Assembly: GCF_013282725.1 (NCBI RefSeq)
Contig: NZ_CP054043.1
Span: 2,480,001-2,544,000, forward strand
DNA length: 64,000 nt
Source: Yersinia mollaretii ATCC 43969
GTDB lineage: Bacteria; Pseudomonadota; Gammaproteobacteria; Enterobacterales; Enterobacteriaceae
Direction: 5' to 3'
Part shown: one piece after another, positions 22,298 through 60,228 of the stretch
Layout of the letters: the number at the start of each line of letters is the position of its first letter
Numbering within the stretch: position 1 is the first letter of the stretch
Translations under genes and position numbers: made by a program
The notes under the pieces: generated by a model
Told to the model about the DNA's origin: nothing
Database searches by the model: none
What the model saw: only the letters and a program-made list of their open reading frames with translations

Positions 22298-22728
22298 TAG
22301 AATCTGGGACAGGCCCCCTGACGTACGGGATTTTTACCATGCACAGTAAAAGATTAATGATGACTCTTATGTCTAACAACCTGCACATGCAGGATTGCAA
22401 CATAACTCACAGCACCAAGCATCAGGATCATCTTCTGAAGGTGATGGGAACTGAGCATCGCAATTTTTCTTTATTACCTCAACTGTTGTTGCTATCGATG
22501 ACAAACCATTGGGATTCGTTGGAGCCTTATCTTGACCAAAAGTACAAAATGAAGACAGCATTAATGCAAGAACGAAAATTAGCTTTTTCATAAAACCTCC
22601 ATAACTCAGTTATAGAATGGTATGAAAACATACGCTAAGCGGTATCAAAAAGCGGAAAAAAACAGTTAAGTCTCAAAAAGAAGAAGATCCGATATTTGGA
22701 ACCGCTTTGGGGCCTGTCCCAGATTCTA
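22298..22728. mobile_element. 431-bp segment bounded by perfect 20-bp inverted repeats, carrying yst
   Basis: The left end is TAGAATCTGGGACAGGCCCC (22298-22317). The right end at 22709-22728 is its exact reverse complement. The enclosed DNA holds only the enterotoxin gene and its upstream region. No transposase is present, and I could not see an obvious target-site duplication at the outer borders. The ushA-ybaK interval is otherwise short in related genomes. I infer a non-autonomous cassette, or the footprint of an IS-type event. The inverted repeats are seen directly; mobility is inference. Confidence 0.6.
22373..22591 (-). CDS. yst: Heat-stable enterotoxin of the Yst (STa) family, prepropeptide
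   Basis: A 72-residue secreted peptide. A typical signal sequence (MKKLIFVLALMLSSFCTFG) is followed by a propeptide. The C-terminal toxin ends CCELCCNPACAGC, the six-cysteine core of STa/guanylin-mimicking enterotoxins, which activate intestinal guanylate cyclase C. Length and layout match Yersinia Yst precursors. GGAGG lies six bases before the ATG. Three disulfides would form in the periplasm. The subtype (ystA, ystB or another) is not assigned. The propeptide carries an extra Cys near residue 50 and the signal peptide one at about 16. It sits inside a pair of perfect inverted repeats. Confidence 0.93.
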   Translation of the reverse strand: MKKLIFVLALMLSSFCTFGQDKAPTNPNGLSSIATTVEVIKKNCDAQFPSPSEDDPDAWCCELCCNPACAGC

Positions 22729-41550: not shown

Positions 41551-41627
41551 GCGCCCTTAGCTCAGTTGGATAGAGCAACGGCCTTCTAAGCCGTAGGTCA
41601 CAGGTTCGAGCCCTGTAGGGCGTACCA
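41551..41627 (+). tRNA. argU: tRNA-Arg (anticodon TCT)
   Basis: A 77-base cloverleaf with encoded CCA. GCGCCCT pairs with AGGGCGT in the acceptor stem. The anticodon loop CTTCTAA gives TCT at 41585-41587, reading AGA codons. GGTTCGAGCC is the T arm. It lies after folD as argU does in E. coli, where it hosts prophage DLP12. An integrase gene follows, so its 3' end is the likely attachment site. Confidence 0.97.
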
Positions 41628-41802
41628 TTTTCAAGTCAATACACCTCTACTGAATTCTCTTTTTATCCCTTATACTCCCTGAAATTACTGAATTTTTCTG
41701 TCACGAGTTCTATCGAAGTCAACTCAGTTATACCTAAATCAAGTGGTATCTGGGGGCCTTTGAGGGGGCTCATCTCGTTCAATGGAAATTAGGGGCCCCT
41801 TT

Positions 41803-43014
41803 ATGCCACTAAATGCACGACAGATTGATACTGCAAAACCCAAAGAAAAAGAATATAAGCTCACTGATGGCGGTGGCCTGTATCTGTTAGTAAAGCCTAA
41901 CGGTGCGAAGTACTGGCGTTTGAAGTATCGTTTTTTGGGTAAAGAAAAAAAGCTCTCTATTGGTGTTTATCCTGATATCTCTTTGGCTGATGCTCGCTTG
42001 AAGCGAGAAGAAGCTCGTAAAGTGATCGCTTTAGGTGGAGATCCTGGAGAAGAAAAGAAAGCAGAAAAATTGGCTCAAAAGGCCAATGTCGAAAATACCT
42101 TCAAGGCTATCGCCCTGGAATGGCATGAGTACAAGCGGCCTAACTGGTCGAAAGGCTATGCCGAAGATCTGATGGAAGCATTCGAGAACGACATCTTTCC
42201 TGATATTGGTAAGCGTCCCATTGCTGAGATCAAACCACTCGAAGTGCTCAGTTCGCTGCGTAAACTTGAAAAGCGGGGTGTGCTCGATAAGCTGCGTAAA
42301 ATCCGTCAGGCCTGCAATCAGGTATTCCGCTATGCCATCGTCACCGGCAGAGCTGAAACAAACCCTGCCTCTGAACTGGCAAGTGCTTTAACTGCACCTA
42401 GATCCACCCATTATCCCCACCTGTTAGCTGATGAACTCCCTGATTTCTTACAGGCTCTTGCCGCGTACTCTGGTAGCCCGATTACCCGACTGGCTACTCG
42501 TATTCTGATGTTGACCGGAGTTCGCACCGTCGAACTCCGCCAGGCTGAATGGAAAGAGTTTGATTTCGATAAACGTGTTTGGGAAGTTCCGGTCGAAAGG
42601 ATGAAGATGCGTCGTCCGCACCTGGTCCCTCTGTCCGATCAAGTTGTGGCAGCACTGCGAGAGATCCAGGCAGTGACGGGCCGTTACAACCTGGTTTTCC
42701 CAGGCCGTAACGACATTACGAAACCGATGAGTGAAGCGAGTATCAACCAGGTACTGAAAAGGATTGGTTATCATGGGAAGGCTACGGGGCACGGTTTCCG
42801 GCACACGATGAGTACTATCCTGCATGAACAGGGCTATAACACGGCATGGATCGAGTTACAGCTTGCGCATGTGGATAAGAACACCATTCGTGGGACATAC
42901 AACCATGCGCAGTATCTGGAGCAGCGCAGGGAGATGTTGCAGTGGTATGGGGATTATGTGGATGAGTTGGAAGACAGTGTCCTTTGGGCAGAAAATATTC
43001 AAGTGTATAACTAA
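41803..43014 (+). CDS. P4-like tyrosine-recombinase integrase
   Basis: A 403-residue phage/island integrase. The N-terminal DUF4102-type domain (LTDGGGLYLLVKPNGAKYW) is followed by the core-binding domain. Catalytic residues are seen in LTGVRTVELR (Arg), GHGFRHTMS (His-x2-Arg), LAHVDKN (His) and TYNHAQY (Tyr). It recombines at tRNA 3' ends. It sits 175 bases from argU and points away from it. The frame opens at 41782; AGGGG before ATG 41803 gives the usual MPLNARQID start. It appears intact. Confidence 0.93.
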   Translation: MPLNARQIDTAKPKEKEYKLTDGGGLYLLVKPNGAKYWRLKYRFLGKEKKLSIGVYPDISLADARLKREEARKVIALGGDPGEEKKAEKLAQKANVENTFKAIALEWHEYKRPNWSKGYAEDLMEAFENDIFPDIGKRPIAEIKPLEVLSSLRKLEKRGVLDKLRKIRQACNQVFRYAIVTGRAETNPASELASALTAPRSTHYPHLLADELPDFLQALAAYSGSPITRLATRILMLTGVRTVELRQAEWKEFDFDKRVWEVPVERMKMRRPHLVPLSDQVVAALREIQAVTGRYNLVFPGRNDITKPMSEASINQVLKRIGYHGKATGHGFRHTMSTILHEQGYNTAWIELQLAHVDKNTIRGTYNHAQYLEQRREMLQWYGDYVDELEDSVLWAENIQVYN

Positions 43015-43101
43015 GAACACTTCATTATGAATATGCTTTAGATAGAGAATTATATTTATTAGTCATTTGATAAAGTTAATCAGTTGAATTGATTATGCAT
43101 G

Positions 43102-43135
43102 ACTTCCCCGATGAACTGAAATGTGTCGGGGAAGT
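43102..43135. terminator. Convergent terminator integrase/helicase
   Basis: ACTTCCCCGA and TCGGGGAAGT form a perfect 10-bp stem between the convergent integrase and helicase genes. Confidence 0.8.
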
Positions 43136-43142
43136 TAGTTTA

Positions 43143-46100
43143 TTATGATGTGAATATTTTAATATCTATACCCATTTCATCAGCCGTACTTAGCCAATCT
43201 TCAATTAATTGGAATGCTTGGATCGTTTCAGATTGCTGGTTGGTTTCCTTAGACATCTCTTCAATAAAATGCTGTTTAGAGAAAGAATTACCCATTACTA
43301 TCCATATTTCTTTACTGCATAGCGGTGATTTTCTTCTTTCTGAAATCAATTCCCAAGCTTTATCCTTAAGCTTGTTTTTCGCATCTGGAATTATTCCCTT
43401 TTTATTGAAAGCAAGCCGAAAACGAGAGTTAAGTTGATGTTTTGCTGTTGGTGAAGGCCATGGCTTATCCCAGATGGAAAAGTTCCCAGGTATATTGTTA
43501 GTTGAATGTGAAATTAGGTATAATAAATTTTTCATTGCCTGACTACCGACTTCTGCAATTGCTCCAGCAGATGACTTAGGCGAACTTTGTGAATCCCCAC
43601 ATTTTACATGAATGAAACATAATTTTTCAGCAGACGAAACGATGAAATCACACGGCTCAGTATTCATGTCTGTGCAAATAACAAGGTCGCAATTGGGGAT
43701 AAACGAATAAAAAGGGCCTAGTTCGATAATGGTAGGATTATCATTAGAATAGTTACTTAATTGATCAATCAAATAAAAAATAGAATCTTTATCAAATTTT
43801 GTGCTTGTGGTATTAATATACATATCTTTTTTATCATATTTTCCCTTTTCTTTAAGGCCCTTAGAAAGCAGTGCTGGAATGCTTATAAGTGAGCGTCCTG
43901 CCCAACTTTCCTCAGCCGTAACACCTTTTTCACAAGGAAGTGAGAATCTATAAAATTTCGATGCACTGTATGTTGTTCCGTCTAAGAAAAGAATCCTAAA
44001 AGAGTCATTGTTTAAATAAGATATTATTTTATTGAAATCATCATTGTTGTTAGTGGTTGTCAAAAAGTAGCTATGTTTCTCTTCTGCATAATTAGTGTGT
44101 ATTTTAAATGACGTTGAACCAATAAAAAACTCCGCACCTTCATTCTCTGAATATTGAAGGTAATAATAGTCTGGTAGGAAATTCTTTTCGGAAATTAATT
44201 CAGTGTCGAAATCTGATAGGTCTAGAATAATTGAAACTATATTGGAATTAGGTTTTTCATTTATAGGTTGTGAGAAGGATTTTATCAATCTGCCATTATT
44301 AGTTGCTTCCTTGGCTGTTCCTAAATCTATTTTTTCAATCCATTCAGATAGTTCTTCTATACTAAAATTCCTTTCCATTTGGTCAGAAACTCGACCAGAC
44401 CTGACTCCTAAATAGAAACTACTATCACTTTTCCCTTGTTCATCCTTATTAACTACTTTCAATGTTGTTAATGTATACATTGCATTACGCTGAGTACTAT
44501 TTATATTTTCTAGGTTTTTACCTTTTAAGGATATCGCTTCCGGTCTATTCTTTGCAGTACCTATGGCCCTTGAGTGAGCCTCTTTTATTTCACGGGCCTT
44601 AGTAACTGCTGCTAATGCTGTTAATCTGTTAATATTTATAGGATTTACAAGGTTTAAGTCGATTCTGTTAGCATACTTGCCACCAGAACTGTCAAATATA
44701 GCTATGCTATTAGATAGCTCTTTAATTATTATTATTTCTAATTTAGGTTCAAAAAATAGTTTATCAGAAAGATACCTAGAGCTATTGAATGATATGTATA
44801 GATATATGGATACATCATGGTCATTTTCTATTTGTTTAACGAGTGAACCTTGTGTATGCAGTTCCCAATATATCTTATCCAAGAGAAGAGGTGTTGAGTA
44901 ATTAGGCCCTTTTTCTATAAAACAAACGGATGCCAATGGTATTGAAATATCATTGGCATTTATGGATTGCAAGTCCAATCTTTCTCTGAAACGACTGGAG
45001 AAGTAGCTGTATTCAGGGAAGTTATCAAGAAATCCTTTTATTAGGTTAGTTGTGCTTAGCGATTTTATAAATCCTTTTGAACCGCTAGGTGTGGATATGT
45101 AGTCATCAAATACGCGGTAACTTTGCCACATTCTTTCATTGGATGAACTAGCTAGATCTATTATCATCGGTTTTATTGAATTGTAATTCCTAACAACTCT
45201 CCCAATAGTTTGAACTAATTCTCTACCACTTCCAACTTGATAGGTTAAAACTAGTAATTTTGCTTCAGGAAAATCTACACCTTCATCAAGTTTATGTTGA
45301 TGAATTAGAACTCTTATGTTGTCAGATTTTAATGCGGAATTTACTGATTTAAACTTACCGCTAGCTTCATCATTTCTAAATGTCTCATGTATACTTGCTG
45401 TTTTGAATTTTTTAGAAATTGACTCGTGGTATAGATATATGTCATTAGCATCTTTACATTTTATTATGCATTTTATGTTTTCATTTTTCGCTAGAAAAAT
45501 CTGTACTTCTTGAAGCATTTTCTCCATTGAATTCACTTGAATGAAATTTGGCTCAGTAATTATTTTATCAGAAATAGCCTGTTTAAATGTAAAGATAAAA
45601 TAATCATCTAAGTCAACGTTTAATTCGAAAAGATCATTTCTATATGGTGTTGCCGTTATTACAACTTTTATTGCATCTGATTGCCGTACGATTTCTCGCC
45701 ATACAGGAGATGGTTCAGAATGACCCTCATCAATAATAATAAGATCAAAGAAACTTTGTGTCTTATCTAGGTCTTCTGGTGATAACATTGATAGTTTTTG
45801 AAATGTTGATATATATATACCTTCTTCATTTAAATTATTAATGTTTTTAAATGTATTTTTTAATTTTATATCTGGATCGTTTAACGTCACTCTAAAAAAT
45901 CTACTTGATACTTCTTTATAGAGCTGTTCCTTAACTGCTCTCCTATGACAGATAATTAAAATATTTCTCTCTTTACTTAGATGCGATATTAAACTTATGA
46001 CACCTGTTTTACCCGCTCCCGTTGGCAAGTTAATTAAGCATGCCTTATCACGAATATTTTTTTTCTTAAATTTAAAGAATTTCTCAACAGCTTCTTCTTG

Positions 46101-46157
46101 GCATTTTCTTATTTTACCTGTGAAGGATTTTAAGTATTTTAATAAATTTCTTTGCAT
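43143..46157 (-). CDS. SF2 helicase with C-terminal nuclease-like domain (putative defence protein)
   Basis: A 1004-residue protein. The N-terminal superfamily-2 helicase has NLPTGAGKTGVIS (Walker A, near residue 45), IIIDEGHSEPS (motif II), ITATPYR (III), KLDEGVDFPEA (V) and QTIGRVVRN (VI). The middle ~450 residues are unassigned. Near residues 830-855, EPCDFIVSS followed by FIHVKCGDS resembles a PD-(D/E)xK-type nuclease core with His in place of the usual Glu. The DNA is AT-rich compared with its neighbours, as for transferred genes. AAGGAG precedes the ATG. It lies 56 bases after the 1270-residue gene on the same strand, so the two are probably co-transcribed. A restriction or antiphage role is inferred. 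Confidence 0.85.
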   Translation of the reverse strand: MQRNLLKYLKSFTGKIRKCQEEAVEKFFKFKKKNIRDKACLINLPTGAGKTGVISLISHLSKERNILIICHRRAVKEQLYKEVSSRFFRVTLNDPDIKLKNTFKNINNLNEEGIYISTFQKLSMLSPEDLDKTQSFFDLIIIDEGHSEPSPVWREIVRQSDAIKVVITATPYRNDLFELNVDLDDYFIFTFKQAISDKIITEPNFIQVNSMEKMLQEVQIFLAKNENIKCIIKCKDANDIYLYHESISKKFKTASIHETFRNDEASGKFKSVNSALKSDNIRVLIHQHKLDEGVDFPEAKLLVLTYQVGSGRELVQTIGRVVRNYNSIKPMIIDLASSSNERMWQSYRVFDDYISTPSGSKGFIKSLSTTNLIKGFLDNFPEYSYFSSRFRERLDLQSINANDISIPLASVCFIEKGPNYSTPLLLDKIYWELHTQGSLVKQIENDHDVSIYLYISFNSSRYLSDKLFFEPKLEIIIIKELSNSIAIFDSSGGKYANRIDLNLVNPININRLTALAAVTKAREIKEAHSRAIGTAKNRPEAISLKGKNLENINSTQRNAMYTLTTLKVVNKDEQGKSDSSFYLGVRSGRVSDQMERNFSIEELSEWIEKIDLGTAKEATNNGRLIKSFSQPINEKPNSNIVSIILDLSDFDTELISEKNFLPDYYYLQYSENEGAEFFIGSTSFKIHTNYAEEKHSYFLTTTNNNDDFNKIISYLNNDSFRILFLDGTTYSASKFYRFSLPCEKGVTAEESWAGRSLISIPALLSKGLKEKGKYDKKDMYINTTSTKFDKDSIFYLIDQLSNYSNDNPTIIELGPFYSFIPNCDLVICTDMNTEPCDFIVSSAEKLCFIHVKCGDSQSSPKSSAGAIAEVGSQAMKNLLYLISHSTNNIPGNFSIWDKPWPSPTAKHQLNSRFRLAFNKKGIIPDAKNKLKDKAWELISERRKSPLCSKEIWIVMGNSFSKQHFIEEMSKETNQQSETIQAFQLIEDWLSTADEMGIDIKIFTS

Positions 46158-46213
46158 GTAATCTCCTTTGCATATTTAAAAAAATTCAATAAATTCAATT
46201 ATGATAAGAGGGT

Positions 46214-49200
46214 TTATAACCAATCCCCTTGGTCCGCACTGAGATCTTCCCGAATTGCATCTTGTTGATAGCTTGCAGCAATACGGTCTAGGCAAGCTGC
46301 CGTACGAGGCCATTCAAATCGAAGATCATCAGCATCTTGTTTATAGCGCTCTACCAGTATTCGTTCTTGCTCCCCTCCATCATGTGGCATACGTATAGTT
46401 ACGCCACGACGGTTGTAAACCCCAACTTTAAAACCATCGTCCATTGCTCTGCTCCGTGCATACTCAAGAACTTCTCGAACAGGTTCTGGCGGCCATGCTT
46501 CATTTTTTGTTCGCTTTGCGGCAGAGAGAATCATGCCTATCTTGTCATCACCAATTTCACCACGACCTGCAGCCTTCAATAATTGACGAGCTTGTTTGAC
46601 CCATGACATCAACGCAGAAGAGTCAATAGTCCCGTGTTGATCTGTACCAGGTACGATGCTCCAATCATGCAAAACTTGATATGCCTGGCTTGCCATATCA
46701 CGGGCTTGCTTAGGATTTGTTGGTTCAGGTTCAACCACATCACTATCTTCTTTAGGCAGGTAGAGTAATTTCATTAGGGAAGTAAAAAATACAGGATCTC
46801 GGGCTAGAGCCTGATGTAGGTTCCTGGCTGGATGTCGTGAATGGCGTAAGACTTGGAAGTAGATCCATTCTAGCCTCACAATTTCTTCTTTTGAAGTATT
46901 TACATCACTCTCCAAATAATCCAAGAGAATACCGATATAATAGCTCGACATCGTATTATCATTATTGAATTTTTCTTTGGCACTTACAGCAGCATGCATT
47001 GCTCTAATAATAAGAGAACCATCTGGTTTAATTGTTATATTATTAGAAAGCCACGCAAGGGCATCGTGACTTCTATTTGCCAAAAGTAAATAGTCAATGA
47101 CATATTTAGCCTCTACATTTCCGGAAACCATAAATACAGGGAGGGTTTCCCAATATATTTTACTAATATTGCCTGGTCTTGACTCAATTTTAAGCCAAAG
47201 CGACATTATAGTTGGCAAAACTTGGGCAATGCGTACTTCCGCTAACTCCCCCCAATTCTCAGTTATAGCTTGTTCCCATAATGCTTGAACCCAAGTTTCG
47301 CTTTCTGAACCTTTCGTGGCTTTGAGTCCATAAAGAATTCCCAAACCAATATTTGCTATATCTAAATCACCAGACATTAGGGCTTTTTTCATTAGAATAT
47401 GTTTATGCCCACACTTTGTTGAGGATCGCGCTAAAGCAAGACCAAAATCGTAGTGCTGCGTAATTGTTGAAGAGAAATGAAATATTTGTTCAAATTCAAG
47501 TTCTGCAAGTAAGAACTCTACTGCTTCCGATTGTCTCTCTTCGAGCCTATTTCGTTGTGTTTGCCAATCATAATTTTCGCCTAACTCATTGGCCCCCGCA
47601 CAAAATAGCCAGCGAAAACGCTCCTCGACATTTTCTGGTGTTAGTGAAAGAAATATAGCATCCAATGGTGTTAATTCTTCTTCAGACAGAGCCCATGGAG
47701 CATCTTTGAAGCCACGGTTTCTCTGTAAAAAACGCCGTAACTCATTCCACAACCTTTCTTTTTCATCAGTAGATGTGAGGTTAAGGGAGTAATCAGTTAA
47801 TTGCTTAGCTGCTGAAAATTTCCAGTTTGAATCAAAATTCCCCCAAAGGTGAAAAAGTTCAAACCACCGTTCGGACCTCCCATTTATATACATTAATAAT
47901 CTGTCACCGATTTCACATGCTGCTGTTGCAACAGAGGACCAGATAATCGACTCCGGCTCATTAGGAGTGAAATCACGCCAATTTGGCATAGAAGAAGGTT
48001 CTGAAGTATCGTGTGAACGAGGTGCTAATGCGAGCAATAACTTCCAACCAGCAATTGGATGCAGCGAGATGATCCGATCAATGACCTTAATACGTTGTGA
48101 TGAATTAGCATAAGTTTGTGGTGACCAACTAACAAAAATCCGCCTTAATGAAACTGCTGGACGGTTTCCCCATCGACCTCCAGGATCAACATCATCTAAC
48201 CAAGCAAGTAAAAGTGCAGATTGCATTAGATAACGCGGGCTACGCGCTAACATCTCTAATGCCCATAATAAACTTGAAAGATACTCTGTGGGTTGCATTA
48301 TCCCTTCATCACTTCGGAATAATGACAAAATCTGAGGTGAATCGCCTTCCAACCCAGCTTCTACAGCGTCTAGAAATACCGTCGGGGCAGCTTCTGCAAG
48401 ATTATGGAAATCCTGAGACAAAGACCACCAAAGTGGCTCAGTTGCATTATTAAGCAACTTATACATCGCACTATTCACATGAGAAGATACATCTGTAATA
48501 AGCGTTGCTACCTCAGGGAAAACAGCCAAGGCAATCATCGATTCTGTTAAGCCACGTCTGATGCTACCTGATGGTTTCCCTACGCTATTATCTTCATAGA
48601 AGGTATCGGTATTAGGTTGAGTCTCAAAATGGGGATCAATGGCGCTCATCACCGAATGGAACGCATTCTCAAAGCGCTTTAGTTGGTTGGAAGTTAGCTG
48701 ATTACCTACTTGAGTCCAAAGATCTCGTAATGAAACTACTTTCCAAAGATTACCAGAGCGAATTAATGGACCACCAAAAGTGGATGCTAGCGGTGCCAAG
48801 ATTTCTTCTACCTGCTCATAAGAGCAACCAGCTAAATCACTAATAATTTTTTGATCTTGAGATGAGGTTTCATCCCAGCCCCCCGCGAACATTGCGGCAA
48901 TAAGCTCAGATGAAACATGTTCAGCCCATTGTGGTTTATAGTCTGGGGCTATGGGCATTAAACGCCTTAATACCGTAATACTGCGGCCTGATGCGTGTGC
49001 ATAACGATGAGCATCTTCCTCATTTAATCCAGCATGAGTTAATGCTATTTTTAGCTCAAATCTCCAGGGACGGGGGAGGCGTATTGAATGACCGGATAGA
49101 TGAGACACATCTGAGCCATAGATAGCGTAGACATGGTGACCATTATTAACAAGAGATTGTGCAATCCCCGGTTCTGAAATAGTGAGAACAATGATTAATG

Positions 49201-50026
49201 GCATGCCTAAACCAGCTAATTGCCGGGCTGTTGTTGCGTTGTCAACTACGACACATTTACTCCAATAGAACAGCTTATACTCTTCAGGCAGAGGACTTAT
49301 AGACGCATAAAGAAAAGCTAGTGCTTCATCGGGAGCTTCGGCTTGCACCGAGAGTTGTTGCGGTGAATCTCTTAACCACCTAAGGACTTTTGTTTTTTCT
49401 TCATCACGTCCGGCCAAGATAACATCGGGAGTGAGAGGTGTTCTCGTTGCGTGAATCCACTCGCTCCATGACTCTTCAATATTACGTAATCCCTGTGGCC
49501 GATGACCTATTTTTACTGACAACCACTGAGCGACCGCAGGGTAGATTTCTAACCAATGGACAAGATCATCAGCGTCAATGGCACAGACATTCAGCCAAAT
49601 ATTGAGAGCTTTTTTCTCCTCTACCCACTTATTTTTACCAGGAAAGCGTTGTGGAGTAACGAATACATACGTTGTTTTGTCTGGACTATACCCGAGTGGA
49701 TTCCCAGATCTTTTATTAAAATCCTCTTCTGCCTTAGCGCGGATAGAGGTACGTTGAGCACCAATTTCCCAAACAGAATCACCCTCAGGAACAAAGCCCA
49801 AACCCAAACTCGTTTTACACTCACCATCCCAACCAGGATATTGCACACTCTCATCTGATGGGAAATGAACTTTTGCGGCAGGACCTACCGTTGCAAAAAT
49901 TAAGCGTCGTAATAATTCAGGAATACCACTCTGACCATCTCTCCGTTCACCCCACTGTGAAAGGTGAGTTGCATTAATCCAGCGCATCAAAGAGCCAGGT
50001 TTTACATTTTCAGGTGGTTGTAACAT
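46214..50026 (-). CDS. Large uncharacterised protein with nuclease-like N-terminus, partner of the helicase
   Basis: A protein of about 1270 residues. In its first ~180 residues, YPGWDGE (about 68), SVWEIGAQ (about 87), KAEEDFNKR, YVFVTPQRFPGK and DADDLVHWLE form a conserved-looking block resembling a restriction-endonuclease fold. It is then followed by AGRDEEKTKVLRWL, like the entry to a STAND-type NTPase, but no GxxxxGK[ST] Walker A is visible. The rest is alpha-helical, repeat-like and unassigned. The start is uncertain: TTG 50062 has GAGG upstream, and the frame stays open to about 50118, the border with a phage remnant. ATG 50026 is chosen here. I know of similar unnamed proteins but no established function. 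Confidence 0.72.
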   Translation of the reverse strand: MLQPPENVKPGSLMRWINATHLSQWGERRDGQSGIPELLRRLIFATVGPAAKVHFPSDESVQYPGWDGECKTSLGLGFVPEGDSVWEIGAQRTSIRAKAEEDFNKRSGNPLGYSPDKTTYVFVTPQRFPGKNKWVEEKKALNIWLNVCAIDADDLVHWLEIYPAVAQWLSVKIGHRPQGLRNIEESWSEWIHATRTPLTPDVILAGRDEEKTKVLRWLRDSPQQLSVQAEAPDEALAFLYASISPLPEEYKLFYWSKCVVVDNATTARQLAGLGMPLIIVLTISEPGIAQSLVNNGHHVYAIYGSDVSHLSGHSIRLPRPWRFELKIALTHAGLNEEDAHRYAHASGRSITVLRRLMPIAPDYKPQWAEHVSSELIAAMFAGGWDETSSQDQKIISDLAGCSYEQVEEILAPLASTFGGPLIRSGNLWKVVSLRDLWTQVGNQLTSNQLKRFENAFHSVMSAIDPHFETQPNTDTFYEDNSVGKPSGSIRRGLTESMIALAVFPEVATLITDVSSHVNSAMYKLLNNATEPLWWSLSQDFHNLAEAAPTVFLDAVEAGLEGDSPQILSLFRSDEGIMQPTEYLSSLLWALEMLARSPRYLMQSALLLAWLDDVDPGGRWGNRPAVSLRRIFVSWSPQTYANSSQRIKVIDRIISLHPIAGWKLLLALAPRSHDTSEPSSMPNWRDFTPNEPESIIWSSVATAACEIGDRLLMYINGRSERWFELFHLWGNFDSNWKFSAAKQLTDYSLNLTSTDEKERLWNELRRFLQRNRGFKDAPWALSEEELTPLDAIFLSLTPENVEERFRWLFCAGANELGENYDWQTQRNRLEERQSEAVEFLLAELEFEQIFHFSSTITQHYDFGLALARSSTKCGHKHILMKKALMSGDLDIANIGLGILYGLKATKGSESETWVQALWEQAITENWGELAEVRIAQVLPTIMSLWLKIESRPGNISKIYWETLPVFMVSGNVEAKYVIDYLLLANRSHDALAWLSNNITIKPDGSLIIRAMHAAVSAKEKFNNDNTMSSYYIGILLDYLESDVNTSKEEIVRLEWIYFQVLRHSRHPARNLHQALARDPVFFTSLMKLLYLPKEDSDVVEPEPTNPKQARDMASQAYQVLHDWSIVPGTDQHGTIDSSALMSWVKQARQLLKAAGRGEIGDDKIGMILSAAKRTKNEAWPPEPVREVLEYARSRAMDDGFKVGVYNRRGVTIRMPHDGGEQERILVERYKQDADDLRFEWPRTAACLDRIAASYQQDAIREDLSADQGDWL

Positions 50027-50102
50027 ACCCCTTTCAACTACCCCACCAGCTATAAACTGCAAACCTTCAGCCTCTACACCCTGCCATATTTCTGCGTGAT
50101 GA

Positions 50103-50292
50103 GGTGCCGGGGGAGTGCTGGATCACTCTCGTATTAACGAAGCGATCAGCATTGCCACCGGGGAGTATAAGCATGTTCTGGTCAGCCCGACCGATGATGT
50201 TCAACTGGCCGCGACTGAGCTGCCCATTGTGGGAGAACTGACGTGGACATGACCGACAGCCAACTATTAATAAACCTCCTGCCGAGTCAAAT
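50103..50292 (+). pseudogene. Phage baseplate J-like 3' fragment joined to the start of a gpI-like gene
   Basis: A plus-strand frame ending at TGA 50250-50252 encodes GVLDHSRINEAISIATGEYK and then LPIVGELTW, which looks like the C-terminus of a P2-type baseplate assembly protein J. ATG 50249 overlaps this stop and starts a new frame (MTDSQLLINLLP), as the next tail gene (gpI) does in P2-like phages, but it is cut off after about a dozen codons. This is a leftover of a prophage tail module between the two large island genes and the autotransporter. Confidence 0.65.
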
Positions 50293-50304
50293 CATAAATA
50301 CAAA

Positions 50305-50324
50305 ACCGGGCTTAATGGCCCGGT
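50305..50324 (-). terminator. Autotransporter terminator
   Basis: ACCGGGC and GCCCGGT form a stem with a TTAATG loop. On the minus strand it is followed by TTTTG, downstream of the autotransporter stop. Confidence 0.75.
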
Positions 50325-50352
50325 CTATTTACCTATAATTTGTTAGACAGTA

Positions 50353-53300
50353 TTAGAAGTTATATTTAATTCCTAACATCACTGCAGTATCGCTATAGCC
50401 TTTATTACCAATTTGCTGTCCGACATTACCCCAGACATTCACTTTCTTATTTATCTGGCCTTCTACACCCACTTTCAGTTCACCAATATTGGCGGCACCG
50501 TCTTGCTTCACGGTTACATTATCCATTGTGGTACCAAAGTCCTTAGTATTGTGGATCCAGTTTGCTTCAATAAACGGCTGGAATTCACGGTCTTTACCCT
50601 TATCCAGATCGCTGTAACCATTCATAAAGGCTTTTACACCTAGACGGGTTTGGATATTTCCATCACCTTCACCAAAAACATTAGTGCCGTTGGCTTCTTT
50701 ATGGTCGTCAGCTTTAACACCCATCCAGGAAACCTGCGCTTTAGGCTGGATAAAGTAGGTGGCATTCTTAGCTGCATTTTCACCCACTTTAAAGGTATAG
50801 CCACTTTCAAGAGAGGCAGTCACACCTTTAGATTTGTACTCTTCATTTTCCAAGTTTTGACCGTGAACAGTGTTGTTGAACCAGCTGTATTGCGCAGAGC
50901 TGTCCACATATAAGCCAGATTTATCGGCTTCGTTAGCATACCAAGTACCGTATACACCCAAGCTGTAACCATCAGTTGTCCCTTTTGCGTTGTAACCGGA
51001 CAGTTGTGAAACAGTGGTGCTTTTGCTGTTACCATACCCGGCCATAACGCCCAGGCGGGTACTGTCTTTGTCGTTATTGCTCCATTGGGCAATATCGCCC
51101 CCTAGTTGCACGACATAACGATTAGCCTGTGTACTCAGTTGACCCGAAGTATCACGAGAGCGGTTATGACCACCCTCGTTACGTAACCACAGACTGGTCA
51201 CTTTATGTTCGCCAGTCAATGCATCGATATATTGGGTTTCACCCACACGGTCATGTAAGCTCGTGACAAACATACCATTTGCCGCTGCTAGATTAGCTGT
51301 GTAACTGCCAGCTTCCGGACGTTCAATAATTAATGCTGGTTCAACAGGGTTGGTAAGATCAACTGCGTTGGTCAAATACCAGTTACTCGCATTGGTTCCT
51401 ACCCCGCGAGCCAGAGAGTAATCATACGCACCGGCAACAATACGTCCCTGCTTAACAAACTCACCGTTCGACAGTCCATTCACCTTAATCAACTCAATAC
51501 CGTTTAATGTCGTCGCGCCACTGCCACCCAAGTTAGTTACAGCCACATGAGTGGTGCCAGCAGTATTACCATTAACGACTAATTTATCAGTAACTGAAGC
51601 ATCATTATTGAGTGCTGAGTTAAAGTTGAGCAGACCGTCATTGCCGATGTAATCACCGGATACCGTTAGAATCGTACCTGGTGCACCGTTAAGGCTCACA
51701 GTACCGCTATTACTTAGACTGTTCAGTGTCTGGTCGAAACCGGCTAAATCCAGTTCCCCCGCAGTCTCGACAATATATTCAGAAGCTGTACTGAAGCTGC
51801 TTGCCGCACCAGCCTTTAAGGTGCCAGCATTAACCGTTGTCGTACCACTATAGGTATTTACGCCATTTAATACCGTCATACCACTGTAAACTGCCACTTT
51901 ACCACTGCCAGCAATGGCAGAATTAAACTGATAATCAGTATCAATATGGTTAAAGACAATTGAGCTATCACCGCTACCTAAGGTGATAAGTGGTGTATTA
52001 ATATAACCGGCTGATGAAGCAGTATAATTAGCTGCGCTACCAATATTCAGTACTCCGGTTGAAGTTGCATCTTTAGCAATGATTAAATTATCGGTTTTAA
52101 CAGTCCCACTGTTATTAATAGTCAGTGAGGCGTTACCGCCAAACTCCCCAAAACTAATATCACCTGTATTAACCCAATTGGAATTAACACCAGTGACCAA
52201 AACGTCACCTTTTGAGCCAGCGGCATAGCCGACATAGCTACCAGAACTACTGAGATTCCCGCCATCGGAGACGACGACAGAGCCATTTCCATTGTTACCT
52301 ATAACCAAGCTGTTAGAGTTTTGCCAAGAAGAATCTGTACCTGAGATATTTACTTGGCCAGTGGCATCTTTTCCTGCACCAACATAACCAAAACTATCAG
52401 TTACAACACCACCATTAGTGATATTTAGAGTACTATTAGAACCTACTGATGCGTAAAATGAACCAATTTGCAGGGTCTCGGCATTATCCCAACGAGAGTC
52501 GGTGCCGGTAATTTCTACCACTCCGATAGAGTCATTAATATTCCCGCTTTGACTGGCTACTACACCACCATCAGAAACAACCATGGTGGCAGGGCCATTT
52601 GTTCCTATATCAAGCAATGTACCCACTTGCCAGCGGGAACCTGCACCGCTCACTTCTACATAACCGGTTGAAGTAGTTCCTGCCGCAACGCTTGCTTTCG
52701 TTGCCGTGGTAACAATGCCGCCATTGGTGATTTTAAGACTGCCATCACCTTCATGGCCGATGAACATACGATTACCAGCATTCCAGATTGAGCCTAGACC
52801 TGTGACTTCAACGCTACCGGTTGAACCTGGGCGATACGCAATATCAGCATCATTTTGGTTGGTGACTACAGCACCATCGGTAATTCGCATCATGCCATTA
52901 CTATCATTTTCGCCACCAATGCGTAACTCACCTCCGTTGGTTAGTTGTGAACCAGTTCCACTGACTTCAAGATAACCAACAGCCCCAACACCAAAACCAA
53001 CATGTGTCGCGTTAACAGGGTTATTTACAACTCCACCATCCGATATCTGTAATGTGCCGTTACCGTTATAACCAACAAAGAGCACTCCGTTATTTATCCA
53101 CTTAGAGTCAGAGCCAGTAATAACTACCTCACCGGTAGCTGTAGAACTATAGCCAATATAGCTCCATAGCCCAGCGGCTACGTTTCCGCTGGTCAACGTT
53201 CCACCATTTCCGCTGTTCAACGGTCCACCATTGAAAATCTCCATAGCACCAAATGACGTATTACCAACAATTATTACCCCTGGAATATCCCAATCAGGGT

Positions 53301-53412
53301 TGTCAGGTATTACATCACCTGTAAAACCGATGTCAGCATAAGAAGTTGTGGTATTAATCGCAGATATAATAGTTAAGGCGATACAAGATAATTTGTAGTT
53401 AAATAATTTCAT
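50353..53412 (-). CDS. AIDA-like type Va autotransporter with passenger repeats
   Basis: A 1019-residue outer-membrane autotransporter. The signal peptide ends near TTTSYA. The passenger (to about residue 560) has at least seven ~50-residue imperfect repeats of the form V-x-(I/V)-(T/S)-G-x-x-S-x-W, then L-x-I-G, then (S/T)-L-x-I-x-x-G-G-V-V. It ends in an autotransporter-associated strand repeat (YSGTTTVNAGTLKAG). The last ~270 residues form the beta-barrel, ending GIKYNF with the expected terminal Phe. ATG 53412 fits the signal peptide better than ATG 53505. It probably acts as an adhesin; the receptor is unknown. A terminator follows at 50305. Confidence 0.9.
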   Translation of the reverse strand: MKLFNYKLSCIALTIISAINTTTSYADIGFTGDVIPDNPDWDIPGVIIVGNTSFGAMEIFNGGPLNSGNGGTLTSGNVAAGLWSYIGYSSTATGEVVITGSDSKWINNGVLFVGYNGNGTLQISDGGVVNNPVNATHVGFGVGAVGYLEVSGTGSQLTNGGELRIGGENDSNGMMRITDGAVVTNQNDADIAYRPGSTGSVEVTGLGSIWNAGNRMFIGHEGDGSLKITNGGIVTTATKASVAAGTTSTGYVEVSGAGSRWQVGTLLDIGTNGPATMVVSDGGVVASQSGNINDSIGVVEITGTDSRWDNAETLQIGSFYASVGSNSTLNITNGGVVTDSFGYVGAGKDATGQVNISGTDSSWQNSNSLVIGNNGNGSVVVSDGGNLSSSGSYVGYAAGSKGDVLVTGVNSNWVNTGDISFGEFGGNASLTINNSGTVKTDNLIIAKDATSTGVLNIGSAANYTASSAGYINTPLITLGSGDSSIVFNHIDTDYQFNSAIAGSGKVAVYSGMTVLNGVNTYSGTTTVNAGTLKAGAASSFSTASEYIVETAGELDLAGFDQTLNSLSNSGTVSLNGAPGTILTVSGDYIGNDGLLNFNSALNNDASVTDKLVVNGNTAGTTHVAVTNLGGSGATTLNGIELIKVNGLSNGEFVKQGRIVAGAYDYSLARGVGTNASNWYLTNAVDLTNPVEPALIIERPEAGSYTANLAAANGMFVTSLHDRVGETQYIDALTGEHKVTSLWLRNEGGHNRSRDTSGQLSTQANRYVVQLGGDIAQWSNNDKDSTRLGVMAGYGNSKSTTVSQLSGYNAKGTTDGYSLGVYGTWYANEADKSGLYVDSSAQYSWFNNTVHGQNLENEEYKSKGVTASLESGYTFKVGENAAKNATYFIQPKAQVSWMGVKADDHKEANGTNVFGEGDGNIQTRLGVKAFMNGYSDLDKGKDREFQPFIEANWIHNTKDFGTTMDNVTVKQDGAANIGELKVGVEGQINKKVNVWGNVGQQIGNKGYSDTAVMLGIKYNF

Positions 53413-54015
53413 TTTAAGTAATAACCCTGATATAAAATATGATAAAAAGAATGAATTTATTAATATGAATTCTCGTTTACTTTTTAAAATACATATGAGC
53501 ATCAAACTTATTACTACAACGATAATTCATGAACTCACAATAACGTGATCCGGATCAAAAAATAATCAGACACTAGGGGTGGTTTTGTAGGAATTTTCCT
53601 GTTTTTCGTTTAAGTATCTCAATTTATGTATCCAGATAATCAGTTTAAAATAATATTTATATTAATAATTGCATTAATTTTTCATCAATGTGGTTGGGTG
53701 CTGAACCGACTTTATGGAGAGATGAACCTACCGAATCGACCACTTTCTGGTTATATATAGAGAAATTTTAATTGCCATTATGAACCCATAATAAATTGTT
53801 AAATTGATGGTAAAATAACAACCATGCGATGATATTAAATCATTCTAATAGCAAATGTCGTCTTTCACGATTCTTGGTATTTTTAATTATACAGGTTTGG
53901 GGAGGGAAGGTTATTTGGGGGTGTCTTGAAAATTTAACTTATTTAACAGTATATCACACGTTTAATTTAATTCCTTTAGGACCATTAAAATCAATGAGTA
54001 CCCTCGATTTACCCT
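53413..54015. other. AT-rich non-coding stretch upstream of the autotransporter
   Basis: About 600 bases with no convincing gene. It should contain the autotransporter promoter, but I cannot assign -35/-10 elements. A plus-strand 74-codon frame at 53829 overlaps the recombinase remnant and looks spurious. Confidence 0.5.
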
Positions 54016-59953: not shown

Positions 59954-60228
59954 GCATCTCATATTAGCGTATCCAATGGGTAAGTATAATACAGGGGAAT
60001 AGCTTTCAGATACAGTCTGGCGGTTTTATGGCGGGTTTTTAGACCCAGTTAAGGTGAGCTGAAAAAGCAAAAAATGCGGTTTTCTGTGCTAAAAATGAGC
60101 ATTAAAAGGTGGGGTTTTCTCTTTTTATCTCTTTTTTGTGATCTCTGCTGTGGACAAGAATCGGTTCTATTGCTGTACTGTATCTGACACACATTTTGTG
60201 TCCAACATTCCACGTAAAGGTAAGTTTG

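What the first reader, a model, noticed from the sequence alone, without database searches (positions are those of the whole stretch)
43143..50062. Two-gene helicase plus giant partner at argU: candidate antiphage system
An integrase at a tRNA is followed by two minus-strand genes 56 bases apart. One is an SF2 helicase with a PD-(D/E)xK-like C-terminus (CDFIVSS, FIHVKCG). The other is a ~1270-residue protein with a nuclease-like N-terminal block (GWDGE, VWEIGAQ, DADDLVHWLE) and a STAND-like region lacking Walker A. I cannot match the pair to a named system such as Hachiman, Druantia or Zorya. Location, size and domain mix suit a defence system.
Basis: partly seen in the sequence, partly recalled or inferred. 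Interest (0 to 1): 0.86.

Follow-up and report, generated by a model that had tools for sequence, protein, structure and literature searches.

The report
Two stacked defence genes, one truncated
Two neighbouring genes next to a tRNA look like two separate single-gene bacterial antivirus systems rather than one pair, and the larger one belongs to an immune-receptor-like family that seems to have lost its energy-switch site.

Summary
Helicase (HEL, 1004 aa) and giant protein (GIA) were found adjacent only in one near-identical cargo block (window, E. coli, Raoultella). HEL was found in 1 of 67 genomes with GIA relatives, and GIA in 0 of 8 other HEL genomes. The window's GIA is also 5'-truncated: the N-terminal HTH of close relatives is lost at base 50076.
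GIA is AVAST-like: PD-(D/E)xK-like block, STAND-fold domain, helical solenoid. It is a remote homologue of PD-lambda-4_A (hhalign E 9.6e-13), with a modest fold match to Avs4 and Apaf-1. The nucleotide site is gone: 67 of 67 aligned members carry a fixed-length acidic motif where PD-lambda-4_A keeps GLSG[VL]GKT.
HEL is a stand-alone SF2 helicase with a putative C-terminal nuclease. Best account: two independent single-gene defence candidates stacked in an argU island, with this GIA copy damaged. Defence function is inferred, not shown.

The parts
41551..41627 (+). tRNA-Arg (anticodon TCT), argU-like insertion site
   Evidence: ARAGORN
41782..43014 (+). tyrosine recombinase/integrase, 410 aa; its last codons (after about 42964) differ from congeners' copies
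   Evidence: Pfam PF13356/PF22022/PF00589; DNA match to five congeners ends at 42962-42964 in four and 42896 in one
43054..50076 (.). cargo block shared with E. coli (L001) and Raoultella (L003) at 92.3-92.4% identity; holds HEL and truncated GIA
   Evidence: blastn; same end points against both
43143..46157 (-). HEL: stand-alone SF2 helicase with C-terminal PD-(D/E)xK-like domain, 1004 aa
45108..46157 (-). HEL helicase core (about residues 1-350): PTGAGKTG, DEGH, QTIGRVVR
43278..43700 (-). HEL C-terminal nuclease-like domain (about residues 820-960): D837 ... H850-x-K852, Q873
   Evidence: invariant in 21 aligned sequences; strand-strand-helix in the model; no Pfam support
46214..50062 (-). 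GIA: AVAST-like protein, 1282 aa as listed, 5'-truncated (HTH and upstream region missing)
49574..49984 (-). GIA N-terminal PD-(D/E)xK-like block (about residues 27-163); D79, E99, K110 invariant 67 of 67
   Evidence: the VIA match to Avs4 spans it
48944..49489 (-). GIA STAND-fold domain without nucleotide site (about residues 192-373)
49313..49342 (-). motif in place of Walker A: residues 241-250 AEAPDEALAF; family A[DE][SAD]x[DE]EAxAF with rare exceptions
   Evidence: 67 of 67 same length, E246 and F250 invariant
46217..48943 (-). GIA helical solenoid, presumed sensor (residues 374-1282; 1223-1282 not modelled)
   Evidence: model pLDDT 89; HEAT-type matches
50077..50352 (.). DNA of unknown origin beyond the GIA break point; no match in E. 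coli genomes

Best explanation
The locus is an integrase island at argU whose cargo is two independent single-gene defence candidates that happen to be neighbours and travel together. (1) GIA is an AVAST-like immune receptor. Inferred mechanism: the C-terminal solenoid recognises a phage-derived signal and this switches on the N-terminal PD-(D/E)xK-like nuclease, which degrades DNA. Unlike characterised AVAST proteins, the STAND domain between them cannot bind a nucleotide in the usual way, so the switch would be driven by ligand binding or assembly alone, with the conserved acidic motif as a structural or interface element. An N-terminal HTH, of the control-protein or HigA-antitoxin kind, is optional in the family and probably autoregulates expression. 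(2) HEL is a self-contained SF2 helicase with a putative C-terminal nuclease, expected to translocate on foreign DNA and cut it, as Hna-type helicase-nucleases do. (3) In this window GIA has lost its HTH and upstream region, so it may be silent or a remnant; HEL is full length. Shown here: gene structure, families, folds at model level, loss of the nucleotide site in the relatives examined, lack of co-occurrence in the samples searched, truncation. Inferred: defence, ligand, nuclease activity, switching.
For: Co-occurrence: HEL lies in L001, L003 and the window's own locus; none of the other 66 GIA loci, 51 of which hold at least 3 kb downstream, has it. A whole-genome search for HEL (E<=1e-60) rings in 1 of 67 GIA-bearing genomes. 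GIA rings in 0 of 8 other HEL genomes, while the control G928 rang. No neighbour family is in more than 6 of 68 GIA loci; in 12 HEL loci the commonest neighbour cluster is in 4. Homology: A4 (40 GIA) against A3 (4 PD-lambda-4_A), probability 97.8, E 9.6e-13, 927 columns. Fold. Lost nucleotide site. Swappable effector: L074-L076 match only the core and carry a different N-terminus with a QVKHSI/DTDD block. HTH variants: PF01381, Control_protein, HigA model above its curated cut-off (L073); 20 of 58 relatives with an ORF over 1100 aa are 1306 aa or shorter, by length without HTH. Defence setting. Truncation.
Confidence: 0.68

Rival explanations
1. One two-gene defence system: GIA senses infection and its nuclease or HEL then destroys DNA, the two proteins acting together.
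For: Same strand and 56-base gap in window, E. coli and Raoultella; 82 of 82 E. coli genomes with a match cover both genes.
Against: HEL in 1 of 67 GIA genomes, GIA in 0 of 8 other HEL genomes; neither shows another conserved partner. The kept spacing can be one recent common origin at over 90% identity.
Confidence: 0.13
2. GIA is an HTH-controlled restriction-like enzyme that reads DNA (a modification or structure) with its solenoid, rather than a receptor for a phage protein.
For: The HTH is closest to restriction control proteins (PADLOC Control_protein 1e-14; PDB 4yba Regulatory protein C); PD-lambda-4_A has a QAKK block that I read as a QxK nuclease motif.
Against: No methylase or other partner is conserved beside it; nuclease + STAND-fold + solenoid order is that of Avs4.
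Confidence: 0.14
3. The STAND-like domain still binds a nucleotide through an unusual site, so GIA is an ordinary AVAST protein with a divergent P-loop.
For: The motif is strongly conserved and acidic, so it is kept for something.
Against: No GK[ST] at the place and one fixed length in 67 of 67; at the end of the Walker B strand an acid stands in 0 of 67 at residues 289-293, 1 of 67 at 294 and 19 of 67 at 295. Walker A is essential in PaAvs5-1 (PMC12931631, passages).
Confidence: 0.12
4. The block is a decayed remnant without function in this genome.
For: GIA is truncated at the 5' end; no copy of the tRNA 3' end was found in the window by a 12-mer search; one promoter-like site against 1.1 expected upstream of GIA.
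Against: HEL is full length, GIA's remaining frame is open over 1282 codons, and about a third of the relatives with a long ORF lack the HTH by length and start near the in-frame ATG at residue 26.
Confidence: 0.3

Closest known systems
PD-lambda-4, protein A (PADLOC PDLC03991)
   Same: Length, order of domains, collinear over 927 columns (E 9.6e-13); weak PADLOC hits at matching places in several members
   Different: The four PD-lambda-4_A proteins examined keep Walker A GLSGVGKT or GLSGLGKT, an hhDN Walker B and a QAKK block; GIA has lost the nucleotide site, has another nuclease-like motif (GWDG..WE..K) and often an HTH. About 16% identity.
AVAST (Avs4, Avs5)
   Different: No Walker A or B; no PADLOC Avs hit; no sequence match to the one Avs4 tested. 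Walker A is essential in PaAvs5-1 (PMC12931631, passages).
Hna (single-protein SF2 helicase + PD-(D/E)XK nuclease)
   Same: HEL has the same order, helicase then putative nuclease, in one stand-alone protein
   Different: Hna is 845 aa and DinG-like (PMC13381803, passages); HEL is 1004 aa, its VIA rows are FANCM, RIG-I, MDA5, RadD and other SF2 enzymes, and it has a long middle region and an unusual H-x-K
SauUSI and type I HsdR / PbeA helicases
   Same: Helicase core similarity (7clg 1.3e-8 by sequence and first Foldseek row; PbeA 8.6e-19)
   Different: The sequence similarity covers the helicase core only; SauUSI's own nuclease type is from memory and was not compared

Membership tests
AVAST | tripartite order: N-terminal effector, STAND-fold domain, C-terminal sensor repeats | tested here: met
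AVAST | P-loop NTPase with Walker A/B needed for immunity | tested here: not met
   0 of 58 long ORFs have Walker A in the first 600 aa; of 120 listed proteins 3 match the pattern, all in the nuclease block; 67 of 67 aligned carry the acidic motif
AVAST | match to a PADLOC Avs model | tested here: not met
   no Avs model at E<=1 for GIA or the seven relatives scanned
AVAST | recognition of a conserved phage protein | not testable with these tools
   needs phage escape mutants or binding assays
PD-lambda-4 | homology of the large subunit to PD-lambda-4_A | tested here: met
   hhalign probability 97.8, E 9.6e-13; remote only: narrower profile probability 35, single-protein HMM E 0.003
PD-lambda-4 | P-loop NTPase in the large subunit | tested here: not met
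   4 of 4 PD-lambda-4_A have it, 0 of 67 GIA
PD-lambda-4 | a conserved second gene beside the large one | tested here: not met
   no neighbour family in more than 6 of 68 GIA loci; which gene is the second PD-lambda-4 component was not determined here
Hna | SF2 helicase and PD-(D/E)XK nuclease in one stand-alone protein | tested here: inconclusive
   helicase clear; nuclease only by invariant residues and model topology, no Pfam hit
Hna | DinG-like subclass of SF2 | tested here: inconclusive
   Hna and DinG are not among the 50 VIA rows shown; other SF2 helicases fill the list
Hachiman | HamA beside a HamB helicase | tested here: not met
   HamB only at E 0.0096 in the helicase core; no HamA hit for GIA at E<=1
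Druantia / Zorya | PADLOC component match | tested here: not met
   no Dru or Zor family at E<=1 for either protein

The most novel reading that the evidence does not exclude
GIA founds a wide family of AVAST-like immune receptors that signal without any nucleotide switch. The P-loop was replaced, once and family-wide, by a conserved acidic motif, while the nuclease at the front stayed exchangeable and HTH modules of the restriction-control or HigA-antitoxin kind were fused on to autoregulate it. Ligand binding by the solenoid would turn on the nuclease directly.
Probability: 0.38. Interest if true: 0.76.

Novelty: new variant of a known kind. Interest (0 to 1): 0.57.

Why it matters
STAND immune receptors, from Apaf-1 to AVAST, are understood as nucleotide-gated switches. 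A natural family that keeps the fold but has replaced the nucleotide site with a fixed motif gives a direct way to ask what the nucleotide is needed for. The block is in 82 complete E. coli genomes and the copy examined (L001) has full-length genes, so the question can be tested in laboratory E. coli. HEL adds a separate single-gene helicase-nuclease candidate, for which my searches found no name, that is also on plasmids of E. coli, Klebsiella and other hosts (12 records, 10 predicted conjugative).

Tried and rejected
Two-gene system: tested in both directions and not supported. Limits: drafts and MAGs among the genomes, and no positive control.

Named-system hits: PADLOC, Pfam, NCBIfam and PHROGs on both proteins. 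PbeA, REase_I and HamB rows cover the helicase core. phrog_18693 matches GIA over its whole length (2e-175) but has no stated function. INPHARED phages gave one weak GIA hit, IMG/VR no GIA relative, and for HEL 16 loci of which one is a close relative (L101, 52%).

att duplication: a 12-mer search of 41551-41800 against the window found no copy of the tRNA part; the only matches were a T-rich 13-base one at 60117 and a 12-base one at 22603, both from DNA behind the tRNA. Origin of 50077-50352: no match in E. coli genomes. Viral fold library for GIA: nothing at E 0.001 or below. GIA family against one Avs4 by sequence: no match. Pfam on isolated nuclease pieces: nothing credible. Hna and DinG were not among the VIA rows for HEL; that is no evidence of absence.

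Literature: accession search of five proteins, 0 papers; keyword searches listed no paper that I recognised as treating either family; some of these listings were off topic. No claim beyond those searches. Read as passages only: PMC10952713, PMC9519451, PMC13381803, PMC12724215, PMC12799240, PMC12931631.

Selections: the neighbour scan used 111 of 345 ORFs (200 aa or longer, within 5 kb), all from loci L004-L039 because of the residue cap, at most two per side and with proteins of 1500 aa or more left out. Its 115 families include 21 from a single methylase ORF, and the number of ORFs hit was not given. The protein searches listed 120 of 781 and 120 of 335 hits. One search covers 58 of 68 loci (ORF over 1100 aa). 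GIA residues 1-22 and 1223-1282 were not modelled.

Full report
1. What is there. A tRNA-Arg (TCT) gene lies at 41551-41627, followed by a tyrosine integrase, 41782-43014 +. Then come two minus-strand genes 56 bases apart: GIA (46214-50062, 1282 aa) upstream and HEL (43143-46157, 1004 aa) downstream. GC drops to 31-35% over HEL.

2. Origin and damage. The window's argU and integrase DNA matches five congeners; the match ends at 42962-42964 in four and at 42896 in the fifth, and the HEL-GIA block is not in the stretches fetched from them. The block, 43054-50076, matches E. coli L001 and Raoultella L003 at 92.3-92.4% with the same end points. Those two share about 8.75 kb with each other in two pieces, including the start of a divergent NACHT gene. 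In E. coli, 82 of 5426 complete genomes have the block, all on chromosomes. Close GIA relatives are 1343 aa with an N-terminal XRE HTH (P0001, 93%). In the window the homology starts about 57 residues into that protein, and the DNA beyond 50076 is unrelated and unmatched in E. coli. One promoter-like site was found there against 1.1 expected. The window copy is therefore truncated. Of 58 relatives with an ORF over 1100 aa, 20 are 1306 aa or shorter and so, by length, lack the HTH. An ATG at residue 26 lies near their start, so the remainder might still be usable if expressed; this is inference.

3. Do the genes belong together? Of 67 loci in GTDB genomes that encode a GIA relative, HEL is adjacent only in Raoultella. 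Of the other 66 loci, 51 hold at least 3 kb downstream and none has HEL. Whole-genome searches for HEL (E<=1e-60) in the 67 source genomes rang in 1, Raoultella (1 of 50; 0 of 17, a batch without a positive control; many are drafts or MAGs, and L069 is a weak GIA match). The reverse search found HEL at E<=1e-100 in 7 of 249 genomes of the genus of G928 (G928 is the genome of locus L044, Pseudomonas sp. TH15 by its record title), in 1 of 393 other Enterobacterales at E<=1e-30, and in 0 of 397 others from the phylum at E<=1e-100. GIA was absent from all 8 of those HEL genomes, while the control G928 rang. GIA itself is in 5 of 393 other Enterobacterales, none of them the HEL genome. Neither gene shows another partner: no neighbour family is in more than 6 of 68 GIA loci, and in 12 HEL loci the commonest neighbour clusters are in 4 (integrase-like), 3 and 3 loci. 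The link in E. coli, Raoultella and the window is most simply one recent common origin, since the 25 E. coli rows shown have nearly the same score. The two-gene system is not supported.

5. The lost nucleotide site. PD-lambda-4_A has GLSGVGKT or GLSGLGKT and an MILDN or LIVDN strand end in 4 of 4. In GIA the aligned place is AEAPDEALAF. Across 67 aligned members the stretch has one length; E246 and F250 are invariant, A241, A247 and A249 are kept in 66, and positions 242 and 245 are always acidic. The Walker B strand shows an acid in 0 of 67 at 289-293, 1 of 67 at 294 and 19 of 67 at 295. Of 120 listed homologues, 3 match a Walker A pattern, all in the nuclease block and not at this place. A regular expression for the new motif, stricter than the alignment, found it in 99 of 120. 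By contrast Walker A is essential in PaAvs5-1 (PMC12931631, passages). Loss together with strict conservation suggests replacement, not decay.

6. Effector and regulator. D79, E99 and K110 are invariant in 67 of 67 and sit on a strand-strand-helix arrangement in the model, consistent with a PD-(D/E)xK nuclease whose lysine has moved to the helix. This is inference. Three Enterobacterales relatives (L074-L076) match only the core and carry another N-terminus with a DTDD and QVKHSI-type block, which I read as Cap4-like from memory; Pfam finds nothing credible there. The HTH is control-protein-like in close relatives and HigA-like in L073 (65.3 bits against a cut-off of 47.7).

8. Setting. PADLOC at E<=1e-15 matched 115 families on 111 neighbour ORFs of GIA loci (L004-L039; 111 of 345 ORFs), among them Olokun A/B, Dsr1, AbiE, SoFic, IetA and type I methylase, against 1 family on 36 other ORFs of the window. 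Many PADLOC families overlap (21 of the 115 are from one methylase ORF), and the control is small and not matched.

9. Verdict. Two independent single-gene defence candidates stacked in an argU island; GIA is truncated here. GIA is a new variant of a known kind: AVAST-like in architecture and related to PD-lambda-4_A, but failing the nucleotide-site test for membership. Defence, trigger and catalysis are inferred.

Noticed in passing
L095:2508-14965 (congener genome G378): The same argU integrase at about 99% identity is followed there by other cargo: an ORF with Tn3 transposase and integrase domains and a 2497-aa filamentous haemagglutinin/CdiA-like ORF (label recalled), so argU carries varying cargo in this genus.
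   Followed up: partly
window 50353-53505 -: 1050-aa autotransporter (beta-domain, AC_1 autochaperone, pertactin-like) beyond the GIA break point.
   Followed up: no
L074, L075, L076: Relatives of GIA with a different N-terminal nuclease-like block on the same core: a natural effector swap.
   Followed up: partly
L001:19573-24756 and L003:8383-9186: A NACHT-domain gene divergent from GIA in E. coli; in Raoultella a 267-aa ORF matches its start, near a transposase-like ORF.
   Followed up: no
L073:1198-5301: GIA relative whose N-terminus passes NCBI's HigA antitoxin cut-off: an antitoxin-type repressor fused to a nuclease-receptor protein, next to a ychF-like ORF (label recalled).
   Followed up: no
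phrog_18693: A PHROG of unknown function matches GIA over its full length (E 2e-175), so that database holds virus-assigned copies.
   Followed up: partly
L007, L022, L051: A second giant ORF (1211-1271 aa) of one family lies next to GIA in three distant genomes.
   Followed up: no
L125, L126: Two HEL loci in the genus of G928 have the same neighbour, an ORF of 306-327 aa that looks Mrr-like from memory.
   Followed up: no
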